Notes: generated by a model from the sequence alone, not told the origin. 64,000 nt of DNA from Alphaproteobacteria bacterium (GCA_017308135.1 JAFKFM010000008.1:496001-560000); one strand, 5' to 3'; shown: positions 5,051-24,879, counted from the first letter of the stretch. Translations and numbers: made by a program.

Positions 5051-6285
5051 GGATGACCAGGTTTCCAAATACAAAATTAGAAGCCTGCGTCGATCTCCTC
5101 GCTGGATTCGCCTTCAAGAGTAAGCTATTCACGAACAATCTCAGCGACATTCCTCTGGTCAAAGGGGAAAATGTTAGCCAGGGTTGTATACTTTGGGAAA
5201 TTTCAAAGCGTTGGCCTGCGGCCGATTGGGCAGATATCAAGAAGTACCAACTACAGCCGGGCGACGTTGTAATAGCGATGGATCGGCCTTGGGTGCCAGC
5301 GGGCCTAAAGTGGGCTTACATCCGTACAAACGATCCGAAGGCACTACTTGTTCAGCGGTGCGCTCGGCTACGAAGCAACACTTCGAGACTAGATCAAGAT
5401 TTTCTACGCTTCGTCATTGGAAGCTCTGGTTTCGAGTCATACGTCAGACCGATAACGACAGGCGTAAATGTTCCACACATTAGCGGCAAACAGATTCTTG
5501 ATTACGAGTTTCCGCTCCCGCCCGTCCCGATCCAACGCCGTATCGCGGGTATCCTGTCGGCCTATGACGAGCTGATCGCGAATAGCCAGCGGCGCATTGA
5601 GATTCTAGAGTCAATGGCCCGCGCCCTCTATCGCGAGTGGTTCGTCTACTTCCGTTTCCCCAGTCACGAAAACCACCCACGCGTCCCGTCACCCATCGGC
5701 AATATCCCAGAGGGGTGGGAGGTGAAGTCGTTCTCAGGAATTGCAACCTATCTAAATGGATATGCGTTCAAGCCGGATGACTGGGGTGACGAAGGCAAGC
5801 CGATCATTAAAATCAAGGAATTGAAGGCTGGCATCACAGCGCAAACTCCACGCAATCCAGGCAATAGCATTCCCAGCAAGTACTGTGTTCGTGATGGAGA
5901 TGTCTTGTTCTCGTGGTCTGCTGATCTAGACGCATACCTTTGGATGGGAGGCGAAGCGCTACTGAATCAACATCTTTTCAATGTGCTGCCATCCGATGGC
6001 TTCACTCGTAGCTACTGCTTTCATGCACTTAAGGAAGAGATGCCGCGTTTTCGCGCACTGAGTTTGGGTGCCACAATGCATCACATCAAAAGATCCGCAC
6101 TCGATCAGGTCACTACCGTCGTTCCACCAGTCGCATTGCGGTTTAAATTTGAGCAAGTCATCCAACCCCTACACCAGCAACTGATCACTCTGACAAAGCG
6201 CGTTCAGAACCTCCGCCGCACGCGCGACCTGCTACTGCCGCGTCTCCTTTCCGGCCAGATCGACGTCGAAGCGATCGCCGCATGA
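5047..6285 (+). CDS. hsdS: Type I restriction-modification specificity subunit HsdS
   Basis: This 412-aa protein determines the DNA target of the type I complex. It has two target-recognition domains separated by conserved helical spacers. The first recognition domain occupies roughly residues 8-160 and is followed by the spacer [20 protein letters not shown]. The second runs from about residue 220 to 360 and is followed by a matching helix ([20 protein letters not shown]). It ends [16 protein letters not shown], the usual HsdS C-terminus. GTG at 5047 gives the 4-base overlap with hsdM; ATG at 5053 is an alternative. G+C is lower in the recognition domains than in the flanking hsdM and hsdR, as often seen where specificity domains are exchanged. 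Confidence 0.93.
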
Positions 6286-7235
6286 GCATCAAGACCAACC
6301 TTAGCCGACTTGAGCGCGTACCCCTTCGTGAAGCGTGGAGGCACGAAGCGGGCGACTTCACGCCCTGGCTGGCGGAGGCAGACAATCTCGATGCACTGGC
6401 GCAAGCCCTCGGGTTGAGCGAGTTGGAGGTTGTGGCGACGGAGCACTATGTCGGCGACTTCAAACTCGACATCCTTTGCACGGATGGTGACCAGCAGGTC
6501 ATCATCGAAAACCAGCTCGCCGAGACCGATCACAAGCATCTCGGCCAGATCCTCGCTTACGCGGCCGGCGTGGGTGCGCGCAAAGTGATCTGGGTGGCGG
6601 AATCCTTCCGGCCCGAACACGTGGCCGCGCTACGGTTCCTCAACGAGAATACGACCGACGACCTCAGCTTCTTCGGCGTGCAAGTCGAATTGTGGCGGAT
6701 CGGCAGTTCCCCGCTGGCACCCAAGTTCGAAGTCGTGGTCCAGCCCGACAACTGGGCCAAGACGGGCCGCGAGCAGGCGCGCGCCGCCGCGTCCGCGTCG
6801 CCCACCAAGCAGTTGCAGCTCAAGTTCTGGTCGGCCCTGATAGAGCGATTGGCAAAGAACGCGCCGCAAATCCGGCCGCAGAAGCCGCGACCGCAGCATT
6901 GGCTGAACAACTCGATCGGCCGCGCCGGTTTTGGCCTCAACATTACGGCGAACACCCGCGATGCGCGCCTCGGTGTCGAGCTCTGGATGCCCGGCGAGGA
7001 GGCGAAGAGGCGATTTGCGCGGCTCATCGAGCAACGCCCGAACATCGAACTTCAGCTCGGTTTCCAGCTCGACTGGCAAGACCTACCCGACGCAATGGCC
7101 TGCCGAATTGCGACATGGCTCCCCGACGCTTCCATCGAGGACGAAAGTCGCTGGGACGAATACCTCGCATGGTTGGAGCAGCGGCTTGTCGTGATGGATA
7201 GGGTGCTGCGGCCGATCGTGAAGGCGCTGCCGTGA
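6282..7235 (+). CDS. DUF4268-type protein with nuclease-like fold, inside the hsd operon
   Basis: This 317-aa protein starts at ATG 6282, overlapping the hsdS stop, and ends four bases into hsdR, so it is translated as part of the hsd operon. The N-terminal half has a restriction-endonuclease-like pattern: GDFKLDILC (Asp, near residue 60) followed by QQVIIENQLAETDHKHLGQI, where ENQ occupies the ExK/ExQ position. The C-terminal half (LKFWSALIERL to WDEYLAWLEQRL) resembles DUF4268. Proteins of this type occur singly in bacterial genomes and within some restriction operons. The role is unknown; it might modulate or supplement cleavage. The catalytic residues look plausible but are unproven. Confidence 0.8.
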   Translation: MSIKTNLSRLERVPLREAWRHEAGDFTPWLAEADNLDALAQALGLSELEVVATEHYVGDFKLDILCTDGDQQVIIENQLAETDHKHLGQILAYAAGVGARKVIWVAESFRPEHVAALRFLNENTTDDLSFFGVQVELWRIGSSPLAPKFEVVVQPDNWAKTGREQARAAASASPTKQLQLKFWSALIERLAKNAPQIRPQKPRPQHWLNNSIGRAGFGLNITANTRDARLGVELWMPGEEAKRRFARLIEQRPNIELQLGFQLDWQDLPDAMACRIATWLPDASIEDESRWDEYLAWLEQRLVVMDRVLRPIVKALP

Positions 7236-10200
7236 GTCCTAGCGCCTACACCGAAAACCAGCTCGTCGAGCAGCCCGCCATTGGGCTGTTTGCGGCGCTT
7301 GGTTGGCAAACGGTGTCGGCGCTCGAGGAAACGTTCGGCAAAGATGGCACGCTTGGCCGCGAGACCAAGGGCGAGGTCGTGCTGGCGGAACGCCTGCGGG
7401 TGGCGCTCACGAAGCTCAACCCTGCCCTGCCTGGCGAGGCGATCCAAACCGCCATCGACGAACTCGCCCGCGATCGCTCGGCAATGAGCCTCGAAGCGGC
7501 CAATCGCGAAATCTATCGGCTAATGAAGGACGGCATCCCGGTCTCCCTCCCCGACCGCGAGAACGGCGGGCAGAAGACCGAGCGCTTGCGCGTGATCGAT
7601 TGGGGAAACCCGCAACAGAACGACTTCCTGCTCGTCAGTCAGTTCAGTGTCGTCGGCAGCCTCTATACCTGCCGACCCGATTTGGTCGGCTTTGTGAACG
7701 GTCTGCCCTGGGTGGTGGTCGAACTCAAAAAACCCGGCGTAACGGCACGCTCGGCCTTCGACGAGAACTTGACGCACTACAAGCAGCAGATTCCGCAGCT
7801 CTTCTGGTTCAACGCCCTTCTGATCGCCAGCAACGGAACCGATAGCCGCGTCGGCTCCCTGACCGCCGACTGGGAGCGGTTCTTCGAGTGGAAGCGTATC
7901 GAGCGCGAGGACGAACCACGCCGCGTGTCGCTGGAGGTGATGCTACGAGGCACTTGCGACCGCAGCCGCCTCCTCGATCTCGTCGAGAACTTCACGCTGT
8001 TCTCTGAGCACAAGGCGGGGCTGGTCAAGATCCTGGGGCAGAACCACCAGTTCCTTGGCGTGAACAACGCTATCGCGTCGATGCTGGAGGCGCGCAAGCT
8101 CGGCCACGGGCGCGGCGGCGTGTTCTGGCAGACTCAGGGCAGCGGCAAGAGCTTCTCGATGGTGTTCTTCGCCCAGAAGATCCTGCGCAAACTCGCGGGC
8201 AACTGGACATTCGTCGTCGTTACCGATCGCGTGGAGCTCGACGACCAGATCGCGAAGACCTTCAAGACCGTCGGTGCGGTCAGCGAGGCCGAGGGCGATC
8301 AATGTCATGCCGAGAGCGGCGCGCATCTGCGGGAACTCTTGCGCGGCAATCATCGCTACGTCTTCACCCTGGTGCACAAGTTCCAGACGCCGGAGATGCT
8401 GACCGACCGCAGCGACGTCATCGTGCTGACCGACGAAGCGCATCGCAGCCAGTACGACACGCTGGCGCTCAATATGCGTGCCGCCCTGCCGAAAGCGCTC
8501 TTCCTTGCCTTCACCGGTACGCCGCTGATTGCGGGCGAAGAACGAACAAAGGAGGTGTTCGGTGACTACGTGTCGATCTACGACTTCCAGCAATCGGTGG
8601 AAGACGGCGCAACGGTGCCGCTGTTCTATGAGAATCGCACACCCGAGCTGCACCTCGTCAATCCGGACCTCAACGAAGACATTTACGATCTGATCGAGGG
8701 CGCCGATCTCGACGCCGACCAGGAGGAGAAGCTCGAAAAGGTCCTCGGACGACAATATCACCTGATCACCCGCGACGACCGGCTCGAGACGGTCGCGCAG
8801 GACATCGTGCGGCACTTCCTCGGCCGCGGCTTCATCGGCAAGGCAATGGTTGTCTCGATCGACAAGGCGACCGCGCTTCGCATGCACGACAAGGTGAAGA
8901 CGCACTGGACCGCCGAGATCGATCGCGTACGTAAGGAACTCCGCCGCAGCAGTCTATCGCCTGCCGAACAAACCGCGTTGCGCCAACGCCTCGACATTCT
9001 CGAAACAACCGATATGGCGGTAATTATCTCACCGGCACAGAACGAGATCGAGCAGATGAAGAAGCTCAGCCTCGATATCGCCCCCCATCGCAAGCGCATG
9101 AACGAGTCTAATCCGGCGCTCGATGAAAGGTTCAAGGACACTTCCGACCCGCTACGCCTCGTTTTCGTCTGCGCCATGTGGCTGACGGGCTTCGACGCAC
9201 CGAGCTGCTCGACGGTGTATCTCGACAAGCCGATGCGCAATCATACGCTGATGCAGACGATTGCGCGCGCCAATCGTGTCTTTCCGGGAAAGCACAGCGG
9301 CGTGATCGTCGACTATGCCAATGTCTTCGCGTCGCTCGAAAAGGCACTCGCCATCTACGGCGCCGGAAAAGGCGGCGCAAATCCCGTCCGGGACAAAGCC
9401 GAACTCGTTGCCGCACTACGGCAAGCCGTGGCGGATGCGACCGCGTACTGCCTGACGCACGGCATCGATCTCGCGGCGATCGAGGCGCTACCGCTCGCTG
9501 GAATGGCGCGTCTGACAGCCATCGAGAATGCCATCAATGCGCTGATCGCACCCGACGCGGTCCGCCGGCAGCTCTTCGGACACGAGAAATTCGTGGGGAC
9601 CCTCTATCGCGCGGTGAAGCCGGATCCGGCGGCGATCGAGTTTTCCGTTCGCATCGCCGGTATCGACACGTTGGCCGCCGCCATACGCGCGAAACTCAAT
9701 CCTAATCCCCCCGACATTTCGACTATTCTTCAAGAGATCGCCGGCCTACTGGATCAGTCGATCATCGGATCGACGATTCAGCAAGCCGGCCCTCCGGCCA
9801 TCGATCTTTCGAAGATAAACTTCGAGGCGCTCGCGCAACGCATCAAGGATTCCCAGCACAAAAATACAGACCTCGAAGCGCTCAAAGCGGCCATTGCCGC
9901 CAAGCTGGAACATCTGGTGCGGCTCAATCCCACCCGAGCCGACTTCGCGGGGAAGTTCGAAGCGTTAATTGAAAGCTATAATAACGGCAGCCGCAACATC
10001 GAGCAGCTCTTGGAGGAATTGCTCAAGCTCTCGCGTAGCCTCGACGACGAAGAGGCGCGCCATGTTCGCGAGAATCTCAGCGAAGAGGAGCTCGTGATAT
10101 TCGACATTCTGACGCGCCCTGCCCCAACCTTGAGCGCAGCCGAGCGAGACGAGGTGAAGAAGGTCGCGAAGGACCTGCTGTCACGTCTCAAGACGCTCCT

Positions 10201-10378
10201 CGTCCTCAACTGGCGGCAAAAATCGGCGGCAAGATCGACGCTGAAACTTGCGATCGAAGACGCTCTCGACACTTTGCCCGAATCTTACGATCGCCCGCTA
10301 TACGCGCAAAAGTGCTCGGCCGTTTTCGAGCATGTCTACGAGAGCTATCCGGAAAGGAACTCGGGTGTGTATGCTTGA
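7232..10378 (+). CDS. hsdR: Type I restriction endonuclease/translocase subunit HsdR
   Basis: This 1048-aa motor and nuclease subunit translocates DNA with ATP and cleaves at a distance from unmethylated sites. The N-terminal nuclease domain shows [10 protein letters not shown] and VVVELKKPG (about residues 149-167), the D and ExK of a PD-(D/E)xK site. The SF2 motor has Walker A QGSGKS near residue 300, [11 protein letters not shown] (the DEAH-type Walker B) near 398, FTGTP as motif III, and [13 protein letters not shown] as motif VI. A helical C-terminus presumably docks on the methylase core. The start is GTG at 7232 within GTGA, overlapping the previous stop. The gene is full length for the family. 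The operon order M-S-X-R is notable for the insertion before hsdR. Confidence 0.95.
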
Positions 10379-10620
10379 CGGCCAAACCTCAATCTTCAGA
10401 ATATTCTGCCGTTTAGTTGTAAAAAAATCGGAACAGTTTGAATTCGCCGTTAACAGAGCCTTCTGATAGGAGACACTCGCCCTTACAGCTTCTCCAAATC
10501 TATGTGTTATCTCGGAATAGAACTAACGGGCATTTAGGCAGTATCTCTAACCCTCCAAGTGCCCAATGAAAAATTGTTCATCAGCATTTACCAACTAAGA
10601 ATCAAACTGGAATTCTTTTA
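10379..10620. other. Convergent intergenic gap between hsdR and the helicase partner gene
   Basis: This 242-bp A+T-rich gap separates the plus-strand hsd operon from the minus-strand genes that follow. No intrinsic terminator with a convincing stem and T-run is visible, and no reading frame of interest was seen. The base composition drops noticeably here relative to hsdR and stays lower up to about 25.2 kb, which suggests that the following block has a different origin. Confidence 0.4.
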
Positions 10621-12096
10621 TTAGCTCTTTGTAAACGCAGATTTGACTTTGCTATGGATATCTTCATCTGCGAAATACGTACCAAGATTGTCCAGCATGT
10701 ATTTTTCGGATCGCTGCAGCACCGTCTCGTCAAAGCTCACAAATCCTAGAGGAACCGCATAACCGCGCGGAGACCTGATGGGGGCATGAACAAGTATGGC
10801 GACCGCAACGGATGGCACCATCAGTATTTCAAGCGGCGCAGGAAAGCGCCGATAGTCGCTTGTGCAAACGGTATCAAACGCCTTCTCTAAATAACGCGGC
10901 GGCCGCGGCGCTGTTAGGCATATCGACTTAAATCTTTCAGAAAGACCGTCGGATTGCGGCTCCGTCAAACGCTTGCCGATACCTGCGACGGTTTCATTCA
11001 GGAGTGTAGTTGCATTCCAGGAAGGTACCTGCGGAGCAAGCCATAAAAGGAGTTCGGGAACATTGGGGGTTTGACGAAAACCATGATTAATGACCTCGAA
11101 AAGGCGCTTTCGGTTTTCGAGTAAAAGCAGTGAACCGACGATTGGCACCGTCTTACGGTTCGCCCGCACATCGCCAGCGCGCGTGATCGCCTCACGATAG
11201 TAGCGCTCAACAGCTAGCCCATCGCGTCTAGCAAAGTCGCTCAAGAACTCCGGTGCGAGGCTGATAAGAGTATCATAGGCCTCCGCGTTATCTTCGCTTC
11301 TCGACTGCTGCAACCCATCAACAAACGAGGCCACAGCACTCACGATTTCCGGTCGATCTGCTTGTTCATGTTCGGGGCGCCATAGAATAAGGTCACTTTC
11401 CTCCGCACTGGGATTCGATGCCCTTGCTCGCACGACCGTACGCACGGTACCCAGAAAGCGATTTTTCGCTGTGACTTGATCGACCGAATATAGGTCCTTT
11501 TTCTCGGCTTTTGTACGTTCGCGGCGATCTGAAATTTCAAAGAAGAACCTTCGGAATGCTTGTGGAATTCTTGCTGCTGCGGACCCAGCTGCCTCCTCGT
11601 CCTGGATCGCCAGCTCTGGGAGCCCACGTTCAAACTCAGTCAGGAATCTGGGGTGCAGAGGCGCAAGCGATATCAGATCGAACCCAACTTCGCGATGCTG
11701 TTGCTCAACAGCGAATATCTCAGGCTCGGGACTTCCGTCTCGGAAAAGCGCGGCGCCAGCTTTAGCTAGCCAGAGACGTCCATTGCTCCGTTCGATGTAG
11801 CCCGGTCCTTCTGCTTCGGCAAAAACAAACGATGCCTCACGCAAGTTGAAGCCGAAAAAAGCAGCTGCATCCTCTTCTGAAATACCTGGAATCGCTTTCA
11901 CCAGTCGCAGCAAGAATTCTGTTGTCAGCGAGGCGCGCCCAAGCACAGCTACTTTGTGATCGACGGCGTACATTCGACATGGAAGTAGAATATCATAGAC
12001 AGCAAGTTCAATAGATCTATCCACTTCTGGATCGATCAATCCATGACTCTTTAGGTGCAAAACTGACCTTCGCGTAGCCATCTCAGCTTTGTCCAT
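10621..12096 (-). CDS. 509-aa-frame protein paired with the NERD-kinase-helicase (491 aa from chosen start)
   Basis: No known family was recognised. The preferred start is ATG at 12096 (MDKAEMATRR), preceded by AAGAAGAG and overlapping the helicase stop by 14 bp; ATG at 12081 is an alternative. Residues about 45-105 (TTEFLLRLVKAIPGISEE through RSNGRLWLAKAG) look like a winged-helix domain. The middle is helical and charged (EISDRRERTKAEKKD), and the C-terminus is a mixed alpha/beta region without motifs I can name. There are no membrane segments or signal peptide. The overlap with the upstream helicase gene implies co-translation and a shared task, perhaps target or DNA recognition for the large protein. 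That role is an inference. Confidence 0.8.
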   Translation of the reverse strand: MDKAEMATRRSVLHLKSHGLIDPEVDRSIELAVYDILLPCRMYAVDHKVAVLGRASLTTEFLLRLVKAIPGISEEDAAAFFGFNLREASFVFAEAEGPGYIERSNGRLWLAKAGAALFRDGSPEPEIFAVEQQHREVGFDLISLAPLHPRFLTEFERGLPELAIQDEEAAGSAAARIPQAFRRFFFEISDRRERTKAEKKDLYSVDQVTAKNRFLGTVRTVVRARASNPSAEESDLILWRPEHEQADRPEIVSAVASFVDGLQQSRSEDNAEAYDTLISLAPEFLSDFARRDGLAVERYYREAITRAGDVRANRKTVPIVGSLLLLENRKRLFEVINHGFRQTPNVPELLLWLAPQVPSWNATTLLNETVAGIGKRLTEPQSDGLSERFKSICLTAPRPPRYLEKAFDTVCTSDYRRFPAPLEILMVPSVAVAILVHAPIRSPRGYAVPLGFVSFDETVLQRSEKYMLDNLGTYFADEDIHSKVKSAFTKS

Positions 12097-15000
12097 TTCT
12101 CTTCTTGAGATGTTCCGGGTCCTTTGTGCTATCGAGAAGCTCGCTCGCAATTATCACCGAAGCTTCCCGGGCTTTGAGCGCCTTGTCGAAATTGTCGACG
12201 AGGCGATGCATCGCTCCCTCTCGCGGCCAACGTGCGTTGGTACCGACGATCACTAGGCGGTCCATTGCACGGCTAATTGCAACATTGATGCGATTGCTAC
12301 GTGATAGAAATCCCTCTCGTACCGTTATCGCGCCAGCTTGATGTGGCCCGTCTGCGTTATTGCGCACGAGCGAGAGGACAACTATCGGATTTTCTTTTCC
12401 CTGGTAGCTATCAACCGTGTCTACTTTTACATGCCGCAAAAGCGTGTCACCGTGCGGGGCTCTGAGAAGTCGCCTTCTCAAATGATCGCGTTGCGCTGCG
12501 TACATGCAGATAACCCCGATTCCCTGGGGGTGCTGCGTTTGTGTCGTTAACCATTTGCGAAACGGATCATGGTCGTACCACCGCGCAAGCATGCCAATTA
12601 TGCAGTCCGCTTCGACTCGGTTTATGCGGCTAGTCCGCCCTGCCTCAAAGCTCTCAAAACCCTGTTCGCCAAGACCATCCGTCGCGACCCAAGTCAGGGG
12701 GGCTGCGAGATCGCTGGGGAGGACAGAAGGATCGACTTCGGGGGTAACGCGGCCGTGTTCCAGGTTGATTTCTGGATAGAAAGTGTCAGAGACAAGCCGT
12801 CCGATGGGTGGGAGCATCCGATACTGTGTTCTCAACTTCCTTCCAGCGGCAGCGCCATAGCTAGTTTCAAATACACGCTCGAAATCACTGCGGATAATCT
12901 CGCTTTCTGCGAATCCCGTCCTCGTTCCTACCTGCTGTACGACCTCCGGTTTGTGCAACGGCTCTAGTTGCGCTTGGTCTCCCACTAGAATGATCCAGCG
13001 CCCTGCTTGAAGTGGCACTGAAAGCTCGCTCGCCGTGCAACGCGCTGCTTCGTCAACAATAACGAGGTCGAACGGCGTACTGGTCAATCCCAGAGATGGG
13101 CGCCCAAGCCCGACGCACGTGCCGGCCACTATTTGACGCGTACCGGCGAGAAATGGCTCGAAACCCCTATGTGCTGTTGATGCGCTCGAAACAAAGTCGC
13201 GAGCAATCTTGCAAGCACTACGCAGCTTGGCCGCGTTTGCTGCGCTCACACCCGGCTCGTGTTTATGCCGATCGATAAGGGCAACAATCGTATCATCAAC
13301 TAGGGTTCCCGGATTGCGTTCGATTACAATCTGGCCTTGGGAAAATCCCAGATAGGACAGATGCGCAAGTAAGGTTTGGTGAAGGCTCTCAATGCGGCCA
13401 TTATCCACTTCGGAGCTGACAATAAGTTCCGCAATCCGTTCGCACACCGAACGGACTGTCGCCTCGACAAATAAAATTTCATCAACGAGGTCTTTGGGTA
13501 AGCCGAGGGCGGCACCTGCAATCCGCAAGCGCTCGCTTTGTTGGGCTCGAAAGCGGTCTTTGAATAGGAGCTCTACCCTCTCAGAATGGAACGGTAGTAG
13601 CCGATCGGATACGACACTTTCGGAGCCAACGCGAAGAATACTCGGCTCACCGCCAGATTTGCGAAACAAACCTAGCACCGACTCTGCCGCATTGTTAACC
13701 GCTTCGTGCGATTGGCTCGCGAGCAACACGTTGCGCACAAGCCCTTTTGCAAGGGCGTAATGTGTCAGTGCCGCGATGAATTTTGTCTTACCAGTACCGG
13801 GCGGTCCTTGCACCAAGCCAAGAGGCCTAATACTCAGAAGCGCACGTAATGCCTCTTTCTGGCTGGGATTCAGGCCATAGGTTTCAACCAAATTATCGTC
13901 CAGGGTGCCTGATATCAATGTCGGAAGCAGGTTCTTACGCGGGTCGAAGACGTCAATAAGCCCCGGTACGCGCGCCTGATGCGATAGGATTTTTCTAACT
14001 GCGCCTTCGCGCCGACGAAGACTTTGCAATTCAAAATGACTGATGAAGCGTAGCCTTTGATTCTCTTCAACGATGTGCGTTTGATTCGGGTTTGCGTATT
14101 CCGTTGGATCGATAACTACCAAGCCGGGCTTTGACCGAGATGTATCGAGCTCACCGACGCGGCGCCAGATGCCCTTCGCGTCTAGCTTCTGCACACCGAC
14201 AGTGTCCGCACGATCAAAATCGAAGGAACCACAGGAAAGCTCGAAAGGCACGAGGTGGCGCCTGAGAGTTCGGTTAAAAGCACTTTCAGAAATCGCAATT
14301 CCTTCTGTCGTAAGCTCCGCCTCAACGTCAATGAGGCTCCTCCATAAGGCCGGAAGATCTGTATCTACTATTTGGGTCGCAGCTGAATTTGCTGCGATCT
14401 CTTCGACAAGCGTATCTTCGGCGACATCCTCTAATTCATCCAGCTTCTCGGGCTCCTCCTCATCTAGCGCGACAACACCATGGACCTTAGTCGCTCCCCA
14501 AAGTGCCTCTCGCACCTGTGCGTCTTGAAGGAGTGCGGCTAGTTCATTGAAGTCGTTGAATGCCGAACTTACAATCGTGATGTCTGCCTCAATCGACTTA
14601 AATTCATGCTTGGAGATGCGCGTGATCCATCCTTGACTAACAGTTCGACGGTGGCCTGAAAGCGGATTGCCATTCTTGCTAATGCGGATTTCAACTTCCT
14701 CGGCGATGCCGCGGATGACCAGCGCGGACACATCTCTTCGTACCCGAAGGTAAAATCGGCCTTCATCTGGAACAACTGTACCTGTAACAGCGTTGCGGAT
14801 TGACAACGCTATGGTCATGCGGGGAGGCGTCGTGCTCGGTGTCAGCGCTGAACTGAGGGCTTCGACTAGTGGCAATAGTGTCGCATTCTGCGGCACGTTG
14901 TTTCGGCAAACTTCGATTGCAGCAGCGATATTGATCACTGCGTGCGGATTGATAGGGCACTTAGCTAGAATCTCTTCGACGATCTTCGTAACAGCGAAAT

Positions 15001-17035
15001 TGTCACGTTCCTGACGATTACCTGTCTCGGGCGCATAAGCGCTCGACGCTATATCTCCATCCAACGTCGGCGAAAAATCAATCGTGTCAATCAATACCGG
15101 CTCAACTCGCTCGCCATCTTGAACGATGATGTTGTCCGGTTTCAGGTCGCCGTGTGTTACGCCGCGTGCATGGAGCTCCACTACGATTTCGGATAGTCGC
15201 AACAAAAATCTGAGCGCAACATGCCAATCAAGCCAGGAGTCTGGCTTCGTCGCGAGACTACTCGCTAGCGTCTCTCCAAAAATCCAGTCCTGAATCAAAA
15301 CGATGGCATCGCCAAGCCACAACACATCCTTAATGGCGGCGCATCCCGCTAGCGGCGACACCTTCAAATCCAGCGCCCGCTCGAGAAAACTTAGGATACG
15401 CGGGCCCTCGCGGCCTTGATCACCCCAAGCCTGCCGCTTCCACATTTTTACTTTGACGGCAGAATCACTTTGCCAGACTTCAGAAATGTCATTCGACGCA
15501 ATGTCTTTTATGGATGGATAGGTATTGAAAAGATGCCGTTGCGTGCGAACAGCTCCACGAAAGCGCTCAAGACCATCAATTACCTCCTTCGGAGTGGGAC
15601 GTGACTCTGTTGCTGAATTGAATGCTTCAAGCGCAACTACAGCGTCTGGGAATCTCTGCGCCGGGTCGGTATCGAGCGCCTTCTCAAACCAGTGGTGCAG
15701 CAGTTCATATGCCCCATCGGTGTCGATCGAGGCGTCCCAGTCTGGTGGATTACTGGGCGAGGAACTGGCAGGCCCACGCCCGAACAAAACTTCATGGACT
15801 ACAATAGCACTTAGAAATACGTCTTTTGCCTTGGCGCTTGAATTTCCGCCGAGAACATCTTCAGGCGCAGTTACTGTTGAGAGGAACTGATAGCGTGCTT
15901 TGCCGAGCGATGCGACTTCTGGAAACTTTGCTGTAAGTAAATGCGAAATTCGAACAGTCGAAGGCGCTTCTAACCAAACACTATGACCACCCAGATCGAG
16001 ATGTGCCGTATTCGCGACATGAAGTGCGGCAACGCGCGCTAGTATTTGGCGCGAAAGTTCGATGCGGTCGTGTGACGAGAGGTTCGGGCCTTCGCTGGCG
16101 ACAAAATCATGGAGCCTTTTTAGACGACGCCGACGGTCGTAGACTTCCCAATAGCTGGCGCTCTGATTCGGATCAGCAGACTTCGGAATGAGAATCCAGT
16201 TTTCACAACCTTCACTTCGGTCGCGAAGGTAATAAAAGACTTTACCTTCTCGTCCTGCAATCTCCGCGCGTCCCTCTTCAGTTTGAAATCTGCCATCCTT
16301 ACAGTTAGCGAAATTCCATAGTCTTAATGTTCCTAAATTCTGTGGCGTGCTCTCTTCTTCAGCTTCATACTCGCGATAAATATCACTCGGATGCTGGAAG
16401 GTGGCCTGTTCTGATGTGGCGATGTACCGATCGTAGCGTGTGCGCCCTGGTTTGAATGGACCTGTTCTGACATTGAAGAATTTAACGAGGCGATCCTTCC
16501 AAGAAGCAGTAGTCAATGGCTCCAGCATAATGCGTCGATCCACATCGCCAAAAGCTGTGTGGAGCGCCCTCTCGGAGCCGAGAGTCTTTAAGAAATCGTC
16601 AATCTCAAAGACGCTGCCTCGCTCGGTTTCGGAGATTCCGCCTAAGTCCGCAGTGCCAGTGACAACGACGACCCCGACGATTTTCGGGATCGCCAATGCT
16701 TTGCTTTCCGGCCGGGACTTCAACTGCCTTGCAAGCAATTGCAGAACGTCTTTTACGTTGCTGTGGATTTTTGCGACTGGAGACGGCCCGGTATCGCGTC
16801 CGTTATGCAGCCAGTTCCCCGAATCACTTTCGATCGTCCCGGACCAATCTTTGAGGTCGATGAGGAAAATCATGCGATCTGCCACTATGATCACGTCGAG
16901 TTCGCGCGATCGTCCAATGCGCGTGGCCAACTCTAAATTCGTAAAGGCGTACCAGTCTTTCGGAAGACTTTTCAGGCGTTCAACGCCCTTTACCTCTCGT
17001 GCATGAAGGCCGCGCCCACCAATTGTGACTTGCAT
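12083..17035 (-). CDS. NERD nuclease-like / pseudokinase / kinase / SF1 helicase fusion
   Basis: This 1650-aa multidomain protein has four parts. Residues about 10-115 form a NERD domain (SRELDVIIVAD then FLIDLKDWSG, with DLK replacing the usual ExK). Residues about 200-480 look like a degenerate kinase (HLDLGGHSVWL in place of the HRD loop). Residues about 540-740 are a better kept Ser/Thr kinase with HGDLKPDNIIV, a DFG position changed to IDTIDF, and YAPETG. The last 600 residues are an SF1B Upf1/Dna2-like helicase: QGPPGTGKT, VIVDEAARCTASEL, VGDQAQLEPL, TQYRM, VDTVDSYQGKE and NVAISRAMDRL. NERD plus kinase recalls PglW of the Pgl/BREX systems, but fusion to a helicase and the partner gene are different. 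GGAGG lies 5 bases before ATG 17035. A role in phage defence is inferred. Confidence 0.9.
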   Translation of the reverse strand: MQVTIGGRGLHAREVKGVERLKSLPKDWYAFTNLELATRIGRSRELDVIIVADRMIFLIDLKDWSGTIESDSGNWLHNGRDTGPSPVAKIHSNVKDVLQLLARQLKSRPESKALAIPKIVGVVVVTGTADLGGISETERGSVFEIDDFLKTLGSERALHTAFGDVDRRIMLEPLTTASWKDRLVKFFNVRTGPFKPGRTRYDRYIATSEQATFQHPSDIYREYEAEEESTPQNLGTLRLWNFANCKDGRFQTEEGRAEIAGREGKVFYYLRDRSEGCENWILIPKSADPNQSASYWEVYDRRRRLKRLHDFVASEGPNLSSHDRIELSRQILARVAALHVANTAHLDLGGHSVWLEAPSTVRISHLLTAKFPEVASLGKARYQFLSTVTAPEDVLGGNSSAKAKDVFLSAIVVHEVLFGRGPASSSPSNPPDWDASIDTDGAYELLHHWFEKALDTDPAQRFPDAVVALEAFNSATESRPTPKEVIDGLERFRGAVRTQRHLFNTYPSIKDIASNDISEVWQSDSAVKVKMWKRQAWGDQGREGPRILSFLERALDLKVSPLAGCAAIKDVLWLGDAIVLIQDWIFGETLASSLATKPDSWLDWHVALRFLLRLSEIVVELHARGVTHGDLKPDNIIVQDGERVEPVLIDTIDFSPTLDGDIASSAYAPETGNRQERDNFAVTKIVEEILAKCPINPHAVINIAAAIEVCRNNVPQNATLLPLVEALSSALTPSTTPPRMTIALSIRNAVTGTVVPDEGRFYLRVRRDVSALVIRGIAEEVEIRISKNGNPLSGHRRTVSQGWITRISKHEFKSIEADITIVSSAFNDFNELAALLQDAQVREALWGATKVHGVVALDEEEPEKLDELEDVAEDTLVEEIAANSAATQIVDTDLPALWRSLIDVEAELTTEGIAISESAFNRTLRRHLVPFELSCGSFDFDRADTVGVQKLDAKGIWRRVGELDTSRSKPGLVVIDPTEYANPNQTHIVEENQRLRFISHFELQSLRRREGAVRKILSHQARVPGLIDVFDPRKNLLPTLISGTLDDNLVETYGLNPSQKEALRALLSIRPLGLVQGPPGTGKTKFIAALTHYALAKGLVRNVLLASQSHEAVNNAAESVLGLFRKSGGEPSILRVGSESVVSDRLLPFHSERVELLFKDRFRAQQSERLRIAGAALGLPKDLVDEILFVEATVRSVCERIAELIVSSEVDNGRIESLHQTLLAHLSYLGFSQGQIVIERNPGTLVDDTIVALIDRHKHEPGVSAANAAKLRSACKIARDFVSSASTAHRGFEPFLAGTRQIVAGTCVGLGRPSLGLTSTPFDLVIVDEAARCTASELSVPLQAGRWIILVGDQAQLEPLHKPEVVQQVGTRTGFAESEIIRSDFERVFETSYGAAAGRKLRTQYRMLPPIGRLVSDTFYPEINLEHGRVTPEVDPSVLPSDLAAPLTWVATDGLGEQGFESFEAGRTSRINRVEADCIIGMLARWYDHDPFRKWLTTQTQHPQGIGVICMYAAQRDHLRRRLLRAPHGDTLLRHVKVDTVDSYQGKENPIVVLSLVRNNADGPHQAGAITVREGFLSRSNRINVAISRAMDRLVIVGTNARWPREGAMHRLVDNFDKALKAREASVIIASELLDSTKDPEHLKKRNGQS

Positions 17036-17373
17036 CCATGCCTCCGGTTAATCTTTACAAGATTAAAATCTATCGGAGGCGGAAATAAAAGGCTGTATTC
17101 GATCTAAATAGTACCCAATTGCCGCTCAATACGTCCGATTTCTCGAAATCGAAGGCTTGAGCTGCCCCGGAGTTTGGGGAACGCATAGATAGAAGTCCAG
17201 TAGTGTCGGCACAGACCAAACTGCACAATGGCATTGGTGGCCTGATACCTAAGAACTCGATCGTTCTTGGCTAGAGTTTTCAGCTGAATGTTTCTGGCTG
17301 AAAGGAGCGAAGAACAATCAACGCATCGAAGTTTTCAGAGGCTCAGACCATCATTGATTTTGAGAATCAATTT
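17036..17373. other. Intergenic region upstream of the NERD-kinase-helicase gene
   Basis: This 338-bp gap should carry the promoter of the large minus-strand gene. A minus-strand frame of about 76 codons stays open from 17334 to the stop at 17104-17106 (containing RYQATNAIVQFGL) but has no start codon and matches no family I recognise; it may be the relic of a lost gene. AATCTTTACAAGATT (17049-17063) is an imperfect palindrome just upstream of the ribosome-binding site and could be an operator. Confidence 0.35.
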
Positions 17374-18120
17374 TTACAAGGCAGCAAGCCATTTCTTTTC
17401 CACTAAAATTTTGATCGACCGCGCGAGCATGTCCTTCGCATCGTCTCGCGTAGGCTCGCAATAGAGTTTAGTCATAGTAGTATCAATTTCTAACGCAATT
17501 TGAATCACAAAATAGATGTGTAAGCAGTAAAGCTGAAACGTTAATTCCTTATTATAAATTGGCACTACAGAACCAGCTCGCGTATCACTCTTCAGTTGGA
17601 GCGAGATAATGTTTCCCAAGTATGTTTGATCAGCGACGTGAGCGACAGAGTTCAAGTCTCCATAAATTTTGGCAAACTCACTACCGAGGTGTTTAACGTT
17701 CGGCGTGCGTTTGTTCTTTCTGCTACCATCCTGACACTCACGAAGTGCTGCTAGCGTCTCCATCTCTTGTTTTAGTAACGCGGTCGCTTGTACATAAAAC
17801 CCCTCAGATATCGAGGTTTCGCAAAGATCTATTCCCTGAACAAACGATGATGCGAGTGATATCCGCTGTTCCAAAACGTCTGACGACTTCCCTGGCACAC
17901 CACTCTTACTATCCACCAGAATTGCTATTGCGCTTACCGCGAGCCAGTGGCCGGTAAGAAGCTCTTTGGCGTCAACCATCCAGCGTTCACGAACTTTTTT
18001 ACCTTCTTCTTTTTGCTTCTGAAGAAACGCCAAGCCGCTGACGAGCGCCTTTTGCACTTCCGTTCGCTTCGGAGAAATCTCCGTGTCTTTGCTGTCACTA
18101 TCGTGTTTATGAGACGTCAT
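17374..18120 (-). CDS. 248-aa alpha-helical protein of unknown function
   Basis: The start ATG at 18120 is preceded by AGGGGAG. The protein begins with a charged tail (MTSHKHDSDSKDTEISPKR) and is otherwise predicted mostly helical. The segments LASSFVQGIDLCETSISEG and QATALLKQEMETLAALREC, then GDLNSVAHVADQTY, recall the R/E-rich helical layout of DUF5677/HEPN-like proteins, but a clean R-x4-6-H catalytic motif is not convincing (RTPNVKH is the only candidate). A hydrophobic stretch (LTFQLYCLHIYFVIQIALEI) may be a buried helix. It lies between two large suspected defence genes on the same strand with gaps over 300 bp on both sides, so it is probably a separate unit. The function is unknown. 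Confidence 0.7.
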   Translation of the reverse strand: MTSHKHDSDSKDTEISPKRTEVQKALVSGLAFLQKQKEEGKKVRERWMVDAKELLTGHWLAVSAIAILVDSKSGVPGKSSDVLEQRISLASSFVQGIDLCETSISEGFYVQATALLKQEMETLAALRECQDGSRKNKRTPNVKHLGSEFAKIYGDLNSVAHVADQTYLGNIISLQLKSDTRAGSVVPIYNKELTFQLYCLHIYFVIQIALEIDTTMTKLYCEPTRDDAKDMLARSIKILVEKKWLAAL

Positions 18121-18224
18121 CGTCTCCCCTTGGTTTGGTGGGCAACGGGATAGTTGTCAACTGAACTTGGGGTATCTCTGGTCTGTGCCTTTGAACTCAC
18201 CCGTTTAGAACTAGAGTCCGCTCG

Positions 18225-18368
18225 TCACTTGAACCTACTGGCCTTCCAATTGTAGAGCGTCGCCTCGCTATTTCCCCGTTGTCGGCACAACTAACCGGCC
18301 TTTCCGCCGGCCGTGTGCAGCTTCAAAATCTCGATGATCTTCTCTTCCGTGGACCGTCTCTTCTTCAT
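18225..18368 (-). pseudogene. IS3-family transposase OrfA remnant
   Basis: A 48-codon minus-strand frame starts at ATG 18368 and reads MKKRRSTEEKIIEILKLHT, then AGGKAG, a TAG stop, and LCRQRGNSEATLYNWKA before a terminal TGA at 18225-18227. This is the N-terminal helix-turn-helix region of IS3-type OrfA proteins (family pattern: GISEATFYNWKAKYGG). The internal stop and the loss of everything downstream show it is dead. No inverted repeats or OrfB were found nearby. It lies between the STAND gene and the 248-aa gene and marks past insertion-sequence activity in the island. Confidence 0.85.
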
Positions 18369-18485
18369 CGTCCACTCTTCTGTCAGGGCGGATGCTACAC
18401 TTCTCAATGGAAAGATTTCATGGACTCAGGCCAGCCCCGGTCAATTTGCGCCTCACGAGGACATGTATAGCTACCATAGCAAAAG

Positions 18486-21400
18486 CTAGCGAAGCGCATG
18501 TGGGAGCTCAAGAACCAGTCGATACGCTGAAGGCCATCCATGGTCAGCAAATAGATTGAGTGCCTCGGTAAGCTTAATCCGAAGCTCCGCATTTTCAGAG
18601 AAGACCCACCTGTGCTCCGCCAAATACTGCCTCACAATTGAAACAGCGAGATCTAAGCCTAAAGTCTCGAATTGAAAGCCACCACGAGAGCCCCCTACCA
18701 AAATAGCTTCCGCAATTATGCTGAAGACGGCCTTCGGATCATCAGGCACAAAGTACTGGAGCGTTTCCAGTAAATGATACGTGACGTTTGGCATCCCAAC
18801 CTTAGCCATAGTCTGGAAGATCAGGTCAAATTCTGCCAAGAAAGCTCTTCTACCAGCTGGGGACATCCGCGGCGGCGCGTCATCGTTCTCACTTCCGGAT
18901 TTTTCGCGATATGCGCCAGAGCCGAAATAAATTTGCGTCATTGCGCCATCTAGGATCCGAGCTGCATGCTGGGCACGCAACTTTTCGTCTTCAAGCGCCT
19001 CACGTTCGAGGGCGTTAAGTTTAGTTAACTCCTGCTCCGCAATTGGCAGAACAGTTGCGAGTATCCGGATGCTCAGTTGGCGACACCGAATGTCGGTTGG
19101 TGAACTGCCTTCAGCGACCTCCAATCTAATTGCATACCGAAGATCCTGGAATAGACGGACAATAATTCGCCAATTCGGAAGTGGATCTGCAATCCAAGTG
19201 TTCAAAACAGCATACGCGCCGTCAAAATTACCCGCCCAGTACAAACGCCCCACACATGTTCCGACATCCGCAAGTAAGCTATCTGTATTGTCATCTTCGC
19301 GCCAATCTCGCGCTGCAATCGCCTTCAATGCGTTGGTTGCACGCAAATGATCCACACCAAGGCAATTAGATAGTGCGCGCACAAGCGCGTGCATTGCCTG
19401 CACACTGTGTTCGTTCGCCAGCGCCCAATCGACGACTTCCCACATCAGACTTGGATCAGCACGACAGATGACATTTATATCTCCAAAGACAGATTCCCTG
19501 ACTTTTTCAGACGCTGTTGCCACCAGTCTTCGAAGGGCTACGGTCAGCTGCTCGTCTGGAGATCCGCCCGCACGAATAATACGAAGAACGGCCTCCGCGG
19601 CCGCCTTCAACAAGGCTTCAGATTCGCTTTCACTTGTCGAGTCCGATGCCGTTGCTCGTTCTAACGCCCCAAACGTGATATTGCGCGCGCTCTCGAAGAA
19701 CGAAGGCGATTCAATCTTTGTTTCGGTGTGAATTTCGTCGAATACACGCTGAACAAGGCTTGCCAACTGCAGCCATCCCCATCCGCTCAACTCCGGAGCA
19801 TGATTTCCAGAACCTTTCAATAGTGCAGTATGCAATTCGTTCAACTTTGGCCAATGCTCATGCCAATACGCCAATCGGTTCTCGCTTTCATCATGGTGGC
19901 GCAGCAGAGTTCCTGTTTGCCGCAATGCTTCGACCAGGCGATGCGCCTCCTCACTCTGCAGATCAATGCCTTTTCTGATCAGCCAATCAAATTCCTCCGG
20001 CTCCGACCGAGTATACAGGCCGTTATGATCAGCATTCGATGCCTCGGCTGGCATCGGTTGAGCAGCCTCAAGCTGAGGGAATGTCTCCGGCAACACACAG
20101 TTTTCCGGTTCAAGATTCCGGAGCAGTCCGTGCCTAACTGAAACTTCTGGGATCGAGAGCAGCGCGCGCTCAAGCACCTCTCGATCACCCGTGCCAATTA
20201 CAAGATGAAGCACCCGCACAAGCTCGCTGACGCCCGGCCTCAACCGATGTTCAACAAGCACATCTGCATCAAGGATCACCGGGAGGAATTTTCGTCCGAT
20301 ATGCTGTGGATGCCGTGATGCAAACTGGAGCATGCGGTTCCAAATTTTATCGGAGCGAATACTACGTATTGCAACATCGATTGCGTCCGACACTTCTTGA
20401 TCGGCAGGATTGGAGGCAAGCCGCGCCTCCAAGCCCTCTATCCATCGTTCAGCCAGCGACTTCCGATCTTCGGTCCCGTAACTGATGATCGGTCGATCAG
20501 CCAAAAGCACGTATGATGCCTCTCCGATGCGGATCGTAATGATTTCTCGAGATTGACCTAGAGCGCGCAGCTTGTGGTCGACCACAAAAATCAAAGTCGC
20601 CGTGGCGAGGCCGGGTACGGCCGCAGTGACTTTTCCAAAACCATCAGCAAGCAAGTCTCGAGACAAAGTAAACTGACTTCGCTTGCTGGTCGTCATTGGC
20701 AAAATTCGACTTTCGCCGAGCGAGACCATTTCGTCGGCGGCCGGCGGCTCAAAGGTAAAAGTGCGCCGGAACACCTTTACGAGAAATTCCGGCACACTTG
20801 AGACAAGGCTCTCCAGGCAGCGACTGAGCGTGAAAAGATCGTCGTGCGCTCGGACATTGAAGCGTGGAACTTCGAGCAATCTTTCCAGAACTGCGGCGGC
20901 TCTTTCTGGGTCGGAAATAGCAGTCATTGATACAGATTCGATCAAAGGCGTAACGATGTGTTGATCGGGCGTTGCCCTATCCAGCTCTCTGCTTAGTGCG
21001 GAACAGGCCGCACTACCCAAACACTCCAACTGCTCGCCGGATATATGCAGATTCTTAGATGTGAGCTTTGCGATTAACGCGCGTAACGAATACCTAACTT
21101 CCGCGAGATCAAGCTTCGCGACTTCGCTCGATAACCAAGACCATGGGCCCGCATCGGCACCCGTCAATCTATCTGTCGATAGAGTATTTGATACAATCGC
21201 GCGAGTTATATGCCCGAACATCAGCACTGCACTTTGCCGAATTGAAGTATCGGCATTACCCAATCGATCGATGAGCGCTTTTAAGTCACGGGCACGCCGC
21301 GCCCGCTCAACGATTGTCTGAGCGACGAGCATGATCGTGAATGAGCCGACAGCACGGTAGTCTATACCAGCCAATCTAAACGCCATCACCCAGAAAGGGG

Positions 21401-23390
21401 TTCGGTCCGCACCTTCACTGTCTTCCCCCCACAATGACCAGAATGCGATCGAACTTGCGGGGGCGAGCCTGAGCAGCGTTTCAGCATTGGATAGCATTTT
21501 GACAAGATCGTCCGTGCTTCGTCCCAAGCGAAGGAGAACACGCGCTGCGGCATAGTCAAAGAGAACATGATGCGAGAACGCGATCAGATCGTTTGGCTGC
21601 CAGCTATCAGGAGATGTTTCGACCAGCACCCCATTTGACAACAGTGCCTCGAAGTCCACGGTGTCAGCCGCTGAAAGGTTTATGCTTCGGATATCGATTG
21701 TCAGTGAACCCGCGAGAATTTGTGCATTGAGAATTCGTTCAAGTAATGCTTCGCGAGAAATCATTGCAACACGACCATCAGCCCCTACTCGAGATTTCCA
21801 GTATTGGGCGAGCAACCCATCTCGACTTCCGATTTTCCCGGTTTCTTGAGGAGACAGGCCCGCTGAAATAACGTCGATTGCACGCTGAAGATTAAACGGC
21901 GAATGCAAGAGGCTTCGAAGTTGCGGATTCGCCGTTTCGAGCATCTCCTTTACAGAGGGCAGTTGAGCCGCCGCTTCGGCAAGCTCGCCATCGGTCAATA
22001 GAGGAATATTGATGTGGCGTTGGCCGGCAAATTCCGGATCTTGGAAATCCGCAACCCCCACCGAACCAGCAAACATCCTACGCCAAGTCTCTCCATATCG
22101 AAGATCGAACTTTCGAATACTGGCAACGATTCTCCACCTTGAAGAGGTCGTCAGCACTCGCTGGATTAGGAACTGCAGGTCGGCTGCTGCTTTGCCACCT
22201 CGTGCTGCGTCCAGCGCGTCGATAAACAACACACCACAAGCGCCTTCGTTCCAGTGCTGAAGGATGTCACAAAATTCACGCGTCAAACCAGGTGACGGTC
22301 CGTCCAGAGCAAGTATTGGCACTCCAGGCTGATCGGCCCGCAAGACGAGTACAGGATGACCACGCGCAGAAAGGAGTTGCGCCGCGCGGTATATCGCCCC
22401 TGATTTGCCCGCGCCTGGCTCTCCGACAACCAGAAAGGAACCGCACAAGGCGGCGTCGCAGATTGCGCTAACAACAGGTCGATCTAAGAAAACATGCTGA
22501 CTTGCTGTCGAAGCACTGCGCATTTCAAGCTGTGCAAAGGACGCCATCGTCAGCATCGTATTTGCGGTACGGCGCTTCAGCTCAGCTATATCGATCTCAT
22601 AGTCTGGGGCAGCCTTTAGGTTGATCCCTGAACGCCGCATAACCGAATAGAGGGCTTGGCGGTCAGTTGCACTTCGTTCAGTACCCAAGCGTAGCATTTC
22701 GTCGATGAGAACCGTCCAAGCTGTCTTTGACTTGGTATCGACGACGCTGCGCCTTAGCACTGCTAACGCGCTATCCAGATCCGCACCGCCGCCATCGAAG
22801 TCAAACTCATGAATGATGATCAGACCAAGCAGCCGATTTCGATCTTCGACTGTCGGGATACGACTGGCGTGCTTCGTCCATGCGGCATCGGCGAGTTTGC
22901 AAAATCGTTCATACGCCCGCCTTTCGCCGGCGGTCGTCGCCAACAATGATACATCAGCATCGAACGGCTGCTCCGCAGCGCGGCGACAAACCGAGGCAAG
23001 GTCTCCGGTGACCGTCGACGAGCTGATTCGGCTTGTAGCGAGAATGAAGCGATCTTTGGATAAATCGAGGGGAGCACGGATTTGCTCTGCGACAAATTGG
23101 TCTATGACCTTGCCCAGTGGAGAATCCAAGCGTCGGCTCAGGCTTACATTTGTTTTTGCATTGATATGGCAACGACCGGAGGGATTTGTGGCCACTGAGA
23201 TATCATCAACGAGTGCAAATGCCTCTAGTCCAACCCTCTCAAAGAGTGTTTCAACCGGCAACCGCCATACTGAAGGTGCGGGCTCACCTGCCAGCATTCG
23301 AACGGCGCACCAGGCGGCTACTTGATCCTGGAACCGAACACCTGAATGTGTCGCCTGGCCTCCGGTCAATTTGGTGCTCTCCCCCAGCAT
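18486..23390 (-). CDS. Large STAND-type NTPase with nuclease-like N-terminus (Avs-like)
   Basis: This is a 1634-aa protein. The N-terminus (GVRFQDQVAAWCAVRMLAG, then ALVDDISVATN and CHINAKTNVSL) resembles the DUF4297/Cap4-type PD-(D/E)xK effector domains of STAND defence proteins, but the usual QxK is NAK, so activity is uncertain. A P-loop NTPase follows with Walker A GEPGAGKS at about residue 325 and Walker B VLFIDALDA near 385. From about residue 600 the protein is a long helical repeat array, the usual sensor part of such proteins. Length and layout fit antiviral STAND (Avs) proteins, which recognise a phage protein and then trigger an effector. No clear ribosome-binding site precedes ATG 23390. 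The minus strand is shared with the kinase-helicase genes. The defence role is inferred. Confidence 0.8.
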   Translation of the reverse strand: MLGESTKLTGGQATHSGVRFQDQVAAWCAVRMLAGEPAPSVWRLPVETLFERVGLEAFALVDDISVATNPSGRCHINAKTNVSLSRRLDSPLGKVIDQFVAEQIRAPLDLSKDRFILATSRISSSTVTGDLASVCRRAAEQPFDADVSLLATTAGERRAYERFCKLADAAWTKHASRIPTVEDRNRLLGLIIIHEFDFDGGGADLDSALAVLRRSVVDTKSKTAWTVLIDEMLRLGTERSATDRQALYSVMRRSGINLKAAPDYEIDIAELKRRTANTMLTMASFAQLEMRSASTASQHVFLDRPVVSAICDAALCGSFLVVGEPGAGKSGAIYRAAQLLSARGHPVLVLRADQPGVPILALDGPSPGLTREFCDILQHWNEGACGVLFIDALDAARGGKAAADLQFLIQRVLTTSSRWRIVASIRKFDLRYGETWRRMFAGSVGVADFQDPEFAGQRHINIPLLTDGELAEAAAQLPSVKEMLETANPQLRSLLHSPFNLQRAIDVISAGLSPQETGKIGSRDGLLAQYWKSRVGADGRVAMISREALLERILNAQILAGSLTIDIRSINLSAADTVDFEALLSNGVLVETSPDSWQPNDLIAFSHHVLFDYAAARVLLRLGRSTDDLVKMLSNAETLLRLAPASSIAFWSLWGEDSEGADRTPFWVMAFRLAGIDYRAVGSFTIMLVAQTIVERARRARDLKALIDRLGNADTSIRQSAVLMFGHITRAIVSNTLSTDRLTGADAGPWSWLSSEVAKLDLAEVRYSLRALIAKLTSKNLHISGEQLECLGSAACSALSRELDRATPDQHIVTPLIESVSMTAISDPERAAAVLERLLEVPRFNVRAHDDLFTLSRCLESLVSSVPEFLVKVFRRTFTFEPPAADEMVSLGESRILPMTTSKRSQFTLSRDLLADGFGKVTAAVPGLATATLIFVVDHKLRALGQSREIITIRIGEASYVLLADRPIISYGTEDRKSLAERWIEGLEARLASNPADQEVSDAIDVAIRSIRSDKIWNRMLQFASRHPQHIGRKFLPVILDADVLVEHRLRPGVSELVRVLHLVIGTGDREVLERALLSIPEVSVRHGLLRNLEPENCVLPETFPQLEAAQPMPAEASNADHNGLYTRSEPEEFDWLIRKGIDLQSEEAHRLVEALRQTGTLLRHHDESENRLAYWHEHWPKLNELHTALLKGSGNHAPELSGWGWLQLASLVQRVFDEIHTETKIESPSFFESARNITFGALERATASDSTSESESEALLKAAAEAVLRIIRAGGSPDEQLTVALRRLVATASEKVRESVFGDINVICRADPSLMWEVVDWALANEHSVQAMHALVRALSNCLGVDHLRATNALKAIAARDWREDDNTDSLLADVGTCVGRLYWAGNFDGAYAVLNTWIADPLPNWRIIVRLFQDLRYAIRLEVAEGSSPTDIRCRQLSIRILATVLPIAEQELTKLNALEREALEDEKLRAQHAARILDGAMTQIYFGSGAYREKSGSENDDAPPRMSPAGRRAFLAEFDLIFQTMAKVGMPNVTYHLLETLQYFVPDDPKAVFSIIAEAILVGGSRGGFQFETLGLDLAVSIVRQYLAEHRWVFSENAELRIKLTEALNLFADHGWPSAYRLVLELPHALR

Positions 23391-24724: not shown

Positions 24725-24775
24725 GCCTTTCCGATGATCAGAGACCGTACTGATTCGGAAGGTACCGATACTTTA

Positions 24776-24879
24776 TTGTCTCAACACCCGCGCCGAAACG
24801 CGGGTTCCTATTGAATTCAGCCTTAGCTCGCTGAGCCAATACTTGTTTCAACACCCGCGATACTCATCGCAGGTTCCTA
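24776..24879. repeat. Two CRISPR-repeat-like units, 67-bp period
   Basis: Unit 1 (24776-24810) and unit 2 (24843-24879) both begin TTGTYTCAACACCCGCG and both end CGCRGGTTCCTA. In each the CCCGCG and CGCRGG halves form a stem around a 6-8-nt loop. They are separated by 32 bp of unrelated sequence. Unit length (35-37), spacer-like length and central dyad match CRISPR geometry, and the upstream side is A+T-rich like a leader. There are only two units, the loops differ, and no cas gene is in the window, so this may be a decayed array or an unrelated inverted-repeat pair. Confidence 0.3.

What the first reader, a model, noticed from the sequence alone, without database searches (positions are those of the whole stretch)
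10621..17035. Candidate undescribed defence system: NERD-pseudokinase-kinase-SF1 helicase plus an overlapping partner
Seen: a single 1650-aa chain joins a NERD nuclease-like domain, a degenerate kinase, a second kinase with HGDLKPDN, and an Upf1/Dna2-type helicase. The next gene overlaps its end by 14 bp and encodes a protein of no recognised family with a possible winged helix. Known: NERD plus Ser/Thr kinase is the layout of PglW in Pgl/BREX phage defence, and SF1 helicases occur in many defence systems. Inference: a compact two-gene system in which kinase signalling and a DNA-translocating nuclease are fused. No PglX, PglZ or BrxC is present, so it is not ordinary BREX.
Basis: partly seen in the sequence, partly recalled or inferred. 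Interest (0 to 1): 0.78.

Follow-up and report, generated by a model that had tools for sequence, protein, structure and literature searches.

The report
Mokosh type I anti-phage defence pair
The two overlapping genes are a Mokosh type I anti-phage system (mkoA plus mkoB), a defence system already described and catalogued; the one detail worth keeping is that this branch carries its nuclease-type domain in the first protein instead of the second.

Summary
On the minus strand, 12083-17035 encodes a 1650-aa NERD / degenerate kinase / kinase / Upf1-like SF1 helicase protein, and a partner starting at ATG 12096 overlaps it by 14 bp. The 'undescribed system' reading fails: the long protein matches PADLOC MkoA end to end (1655 bits) and the partner matches MkoB (E 2e-115). 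This is Mokosh type I. In 398 genomes of the phylum all 6 MkoB hits lie directly behind a NERD-type MkoA; the layout recurs in more than 20 further loci and in 309 of 5426 E. coli genomes.

What I add is a domain trade within Mokosh type I. In 27 intact loci like this one MkoA has NERD and MkoB has no HKD phospholipase-D domain. In 11 loci of the other branch MkoA has no NERD, and MkoB has the HKD domain in 10. The branches are separate clades, so this is one event. A predicted fold suggests, weakly, that the PLD-less MkoB keeps a PLD-like core without catalytic residues. A review already lists NERD and PLD for Mokosh type I.

The parts
12083..17035 (-). mkoA: 1650-aa NERD - degenerate kinase - kinase - SF1 (Upf1-like) helicase
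   Evidence: PADLOC MkoA PDLC03921, 1655 bits, residues 1-1633 on profile 1-1603 of 1607; Pfam domains
16661..16993 (-). NERD domain of MkoA (residues 15-125) with the PD-(D/E)xK-type motif ELD...DLKDW (E14 just before it, E45, D47, D60, K62)
   Evidence: Pfam PF08378 E 2e-14; motif conserved in intact homologues (L044 with a variant end)
15770..16117 (-). Degenerate first kinase core (residues 307-422; HLDLGGHS at 345-352, no DFG)
   Evidence: weak Pfam PK_Tyr_Ser-Thr; HxD kept, Asn lost in most homologues; Foldseek best match of the model is the TYK2 pseudokinase-kinase tandem
14876..15508 (-). Second, probably active kinase (about residues 510-720; HGDLKPDN at 628-635, Asp650)
   Evidence: Pfam Pkinase E 2e-9; HGDxxPxN in all 27 intact homologues
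12239..13873 (-). SF1 Upf1-like helicase (residues 1055-1599; Walker A GPPGTGKT 1077-1084)
   Evidence: Pfam AAA_11 and AAA_12; closest solved chains are Upf1/NAM7 (E 7e-25), SMUBP-2, Dna2, Sen1
10621..12096 (-). mkoB: 491-aa partner, ATG at 12096, 14-bp overlap with mkoA
   Evidence: PADLOC MkoB PDLC03923 E 2e-115; start and overlap read
11710..11946 (-). Winged helix of MkoB (residues 51-129)
   Evidence: AlphaFold2 model, VIA-align Z up to 11.4 to MarR-family proteins
10672..11469 (-). C-terminal domain of MkoB (residues 210-475), possibly a PLD-like fold without the HKD residues
   Evidence: Foldseek top matches NucT (E 3.7e-3, prob 0.99), phospholipase D, TrmBL2 and TrmB; no HKD motif; no profile similarity to the PLD domain of the other branch

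Best explanation
The pair is a Mokosh type I anti-phage system, NERD branch. Shown by sequence: MkoA joins a NERD domain with a conserved PD-(D/E)xK-type motif, a degenerate kinase, a kinase with conserved catalytic-loop residues, and a complete Upf1-like SF1 helicase; MkoB carries a MarR-like winged helix (predicted) and a C-terminal domain without recognisable catalytic residues. Inferred mechanism: MkoA and MkoB act as a complex; MkoB helps place it on nucleic acid through the winged helix, the Upf1-like motor travels on phage RNA or an RNA/DNA intermediate, and engagement releases the NERD nuclease to cut it, with the pseudokinase-kinase tandem acting as the switch, probably by phosphorylating the complex itself. 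Identity is about 0.97 likely; the cutting by NERD about 0.55; the order of events and the role of the kinase about 0.35.
For: Identity: PADLOC MkoA and MkoB matches; 6 of 6 MkoB genomes in the phylum sample have NERD-type MkoA next door; same layout in named alphaproteobacterial contigs, on plasmids and in 309 of 5426 E. coli genomes. NERD and PLD are both listed under Mokosh type I, citing Millman et al. 2022, in PMC10952713. Mechanism: NERD motif, HGDxxPxN and Walker A conserved in intact copies; the helicase is closest to Upf1, SMUBP-2, Dna2 and Sen1; another nuclease domain, PLD, is present where NERD is missing; MarR-like winged helix; tandem kinase fold.
Against: No experiment was available: the original Mokosh paper is not held, so whether the tested type I system was of the NERD branch is not known to me. 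Secondary papers describe type I as helicase plus PLD nuclease (PMC11672841), which this MkoB does not have. Nuclease activity of the NERD domain is inferred from motifs only. The substrate, RNA or DNA, is not decided by sequence. Complex formation was not modelled.
Confidence: 0.6

Rival explanations
1. A Mokosh type I system in which NERD is only a nucleic-acid-binding or structural domain, and the active kinase is the effector that shuts down the infected cell.
For: HGDxxPxN is conserved in every intact copy; the NERD-pseudokinase-kinase block also occurs in PglW and a subset of DndF, where an abortive role of the nuclease or the kinase is proposed (PMC12839542).
Against: NERD catalytic residues are just as conserved, and the branch without NERD has another nuclease domain, PLD, which points to a needed nuclease. 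The HGDxxxxN motif is not found in the PLD-branch MkoA proteins.
Confidence: 0.2
2. A new, undescribed defence system.
For: No Pfam or NCBIfam model names the pair.
Against: Near full-length PADLOC matches of both genes to MkoA and MkoB and conserved pairing.
Confidence: 0.02
3. A BREX type 2 / Pgl derivative with PglW fused to a helicase.
For: MkoA residues 11-361 match PglW (3.8e-23).
Against: The best stretch covers only the first quarter of PglW; PglZ is absent from the whole genome; PglW ends in winged helices and an inactive STAND domain (PMC12839542), not an SF1 helicase.
Confidence: 0.02

Closest known systems
Mokosh type I (MkoA + MkoB; PADLOC PDLC03921 / PDLC03923)
   Same: Both genes match near full length, in the same order and close spacing as in E. 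coli and other Proteobacteria.
   Different: Sequence divergence only: 28% identity to E. coli MkoA; MkoB aligns with E. coli MkoB at 20% over about 360 residues.
Mokosh type I, PLD branch (PDLC03920 / PDLC03922)
   Same: Kinase plus SF1 helicase in MkoA, adjacent MkoB with a related N-terminus.
   Different: MkoA is 1111-1221 aa (one shorter copy, L066, 804) without NERD; MkoB is mostly 580-640 aa with an HKD phospholipase-D domain.
Mokosh type II (MkoC)
   Same: Related helicase: the MkoC profile matches MkoA at 3e-26.
   Different: Single gene with a C-terminal PLD nuclease (PMC11672841 and PMC10740426).
PglW of BREX type 2 and MAD6
   Same: Collinear NERD-kinase N-terminal part; NERD-pseudokinase-kinase order described for PglW and a subset of DndF (PMC12839542).
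   Different: No SF1 helicase in the described PglW; different partners; PglZ absent here.

Membership tests
Mokosh type I | MkoA: Upf1-like (COG1112-type) SF1 helicase with a Ser/Thr kinase domain | tested here: met
   PDLC03921 1655 bits over the whole chain; Pfam AAA_11, AAA_12, Pkinase; Upf1 closest solved chain
Mokosh type I | MkoB encoded directly next to MkoA | tested here: met
   PDLC03923 E 2e-115; 14-bp overlap; pairing in the genomes examined
Mokosh type I | A nuclease-type domain in the pair (NERD or PLD, both listed for type I in PMC10952713) | tested here: met
   NERD PF08378 E 2e-14 with conserved motif; listing
Mokosh type I, PLD branch only | HKD phospholipase-D domain in MkoB | tested here: not met
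   No Pfam PLD match and no HKD motif. It marks the other branch: this MkoB fits the separate model PDLC03923 over nearly its whole length, as do the PLD-less E. coli-type relatives.
Mokosh type I | Protection against phage | not testable with these tools
   needs an experiment
BREX type 2 / Pgl | PglZ present | tested here: not met
   PF08665 absent from the whole genome
BREX type 2 / Pgl | Full-length PglW | tested here: not met
   best PglW stretch covers profile 14-352 of 1403
Phospholipase-D superfamily (MkoB C-terminal domain) | PLD fold | tested here: inconclusive
   Foldseek NucT E 3.7e-3, prob 0.99, rmsd 7; no profile support
Phospholipase-D superfamily (MkoB C-terminal domain) | HxKx4D catalytic motif | tested here: not met
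   absent in 26 of 27 NERD-branch MkoB proteins; the one hit (L058, residue 192) lies outside the domain

The most novel reading that the evidence does not exclude
Within Mokosh type I the catalytic centre moved from one protein to the other: the NERD branch has its nuclease on the helicase-kinase chain, while its MkoB kept a PLD-like core that lost its HKD residues and now serves only as a scaffold or sensor.
Probability: 0.35. Interest if true: 0.45.

Novelty: already known. Interest (0 to 1): 0.2.

Why it matters
It removes a false 'new system' and files the locus correctly. The NERD/PLD trade gives a direct test of which nuclease does the work in Mokosh, whose mechanism is still listed as unknown in a 2026 review (PMC12926258), and shows that the usual description 'helicase plus PLD nuclease' does not fit the branch found in about 6% of complete E. 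coli genomes.

Tried and rejected
A scan of viral contigs with the diverse MkoB alignment found no relative, and phage records gave no match, so there is no sign here that phages carry it. The same alignment was too diverse for the genome-contig scan; a closer one worked. A helicase-only MkoA next to MkoB in Magnetospirillum (L042) looked like a third architecture but begins just after Walker A and is a truncated copy. Profile comparison of the two C-terminal domains of MkoB found nothing, so the PLD-like reading rests on the predicted fold alone; the VIA-align list for MkoB is filled by winged helices and says nothing on the C-terminal domain. BREX was rejected for lack of PglZ and of a full-length PglW match.

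Full report
Observation. On the minus strand, 12083-17035 is one open frame of 1650 aa with a good ribosome-binding site, GGAGG, before the ATG. Pfam places NERD at 15-125, a weak kinase match at 307-422, a clear kinase at 575-642 and a two-part SF1 helicase at 1055-1599. The partner's likely start is the ATG at 12096, so the overlap with the MkoA stop codon is 14 bp, as stated; the 509-aa frame in the list begins at an earlier TTG.

Identity. Against the defence-protein library the long chain matches MkoA over 1-1633 of 1650 residues (1655 bits) and the partner matches MkoB over 25-472 (E 2e-115). The first is what was found. The second was tested and is not the case: in 398 genomes of the same phylum the MkoB family occurs in 6 and an MkoA of the NERD-type model lies directly beside it in all 6 (in one, G228, the first stretch is cut by an in-frame TAG). 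A scan of genome contigs gave 15 more loci in Phenylobacterium, Rhizobium, Devosia, Acetobacter, Aminobacter, Paracoccus, Mesorhizobium, Bradyrhizobium and others, plasmids gave further ones, and nearly all have MkoA immediately upstream, overlapping mkoB by 4-14 bp or ending within a few bases of it. In E. coli 309 of 5426 complete genomes carry the pair, with MkoA of 1652 aa and MkoB of 478 aa annotated only as 'AAA domain-containing protein' and 'hypothetical protein'.

Two branches. The defence library holds two pairs of Mokosh type I models. Loci of the second pair were collected. They have a shorter MkoA (1111-1221 aa, one copy of 804) without NERD and a longer MkoB with a phospholipase-D domain. 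Counting intact loci: 27 of 27 in the window's branch have the NERD region and none has an HKD motif in the MkoB C-terminal domain; 0 of 11 in the other branch have NERD, and 10 of 11 have the HKD domain, the eleventh being a short MkoB (356 aa) with a transposase gene right behind it. No locus had both. On a helicase tree each branch is one group with full support, so the trade is one historical event and the counts are not independent evidence of a rule. The N-termini of the two kinds of MkoB are related (NERD-branch proteins match the first part of the other model at up to 1e-12, and the window's at 2.5e-5), though profile comparison of my own alignments gives only weak support (27.7% probability). 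A 2023 review already lists both NERD and PLD under Mokosh type I (PMC10952713); it is the only open paper found that holds both the words Mokosh and NERD, and the passage read does not describe the two domains as alternatives.

Working parts of MkoA. The NERD motif E-x-D ... [DE]-x-K is kept in the intact copies (L044 with a variant ending), as are HGDxxPxN in the second kinase and GPPGTGKT. The first kinase keeps HxD but in most copies loses the Asn and the DFG, so it is probably a pseudokinase; two copies, L021 and L046, keep the Asn. The best structural match to the modelled first 1052 residues is the TYK2 pseudokinase-kinase tandem. The same NERD-pseudokinase-kinase block is described for PglW and for a subset of DndF (PMC12839542), and MkoA is collinear with PglW and MAD6 there. 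The motor is closest to Upf1, SMUBP-2, Dna2 and Sen1 among solved structures.

Working parts of MkoB. The AlphaFold2 model (mean pLDDT 72, 16 sequences) has a MarR-like winged helix at 51-129 and a well-predicted C-terminal domain from about 210. Foldseek's best matches for the whole chain are the phospholipase-D-family nuclease NucT, a phospholipase D, and the TrmB/TrmBL2 regulators (E 4e-3 to 3e-2). That suggests a PLD-like core without the catalytic HKD. It is a weak result: rmsd is high, and sequence profiles of the two C-terminal domains do not find each other.

Mechanism. Shown: domains, motifs, conservation and pairing. Inferred: a complex of MkoA and MkoB in which the Upf1-like motor meets phage RNA or an RNA/DNA intermediate and the NERD nuclease cuts, with the kinase pair as switch. 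One paper says Mokosh degrades viral transcripts (PMC11291487), but it cites others and I could not read the original report; a 2026 review lists the mechanism as unknown. Expression in a laboratory strain with single mutants would decide.

Surroundings. The pair sits in a stretch of lower G+C (0.49-0.55 against about 0.57-0.66 around it), next to a type I restriction-modification operon (3431-10378) and a candidate defence gene PDC-M54A (18486-23390). No MkoA of this type was found in the other 22 genomes held for its family. It is a defence island, probably acquired.

Verdict. A correct observation with a wrong novelty claim: a known system, with a modest structural point about which protein carries the nuclease.

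Noticed in passing
window 18486-23390 (-): 1634-aa protein matching the candidate defence family PDC-M54A (E 5e-274), with plasmid relatives annotated ATP-binding protein. A 248-aa gene of no known family lies between it and mkoA (17374-18120), with relatives on mostly conjugative plasmids.
   Followed up: partly
window 3431-10378 (+): Type I restriction-modification operon (methyltransferase, specificity and restriction subunits) with an inserted 317-aa DUF4268 gene, PADLOC PDC-S11.
   Followed up: partly
window 747-2915 (+): MobA/MobL-type relaxase gene at the edge of the island, hinting at a mobilisable element.
   Followed up: no
window 10000-26000: G+C falls to 0.49-0.55 against 0.60-0.66 in most of the flanks; ordinary metabolic genes resume at about 25.4 kb.
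   Followed up: partly
L042, L047, L054, L019: Several mkoA copies are broken: truncated just after Walker A (Magnetospirillum plasmid), split into several frames (Sphingomonas sp. NIC1, Devosia aurantiaca), or with an in-frame TAG (G228), next to an mkoB that is still open in L042, L054 and L019.
   Followed up: partly
L022 4897-8238, L023 6164-9535: Helicases of about 1115 aa that match MkoA only in part, with neighbours of about 500-800 aa and no MkoB found beside them; possibly a related, different system.
   Followed up: no
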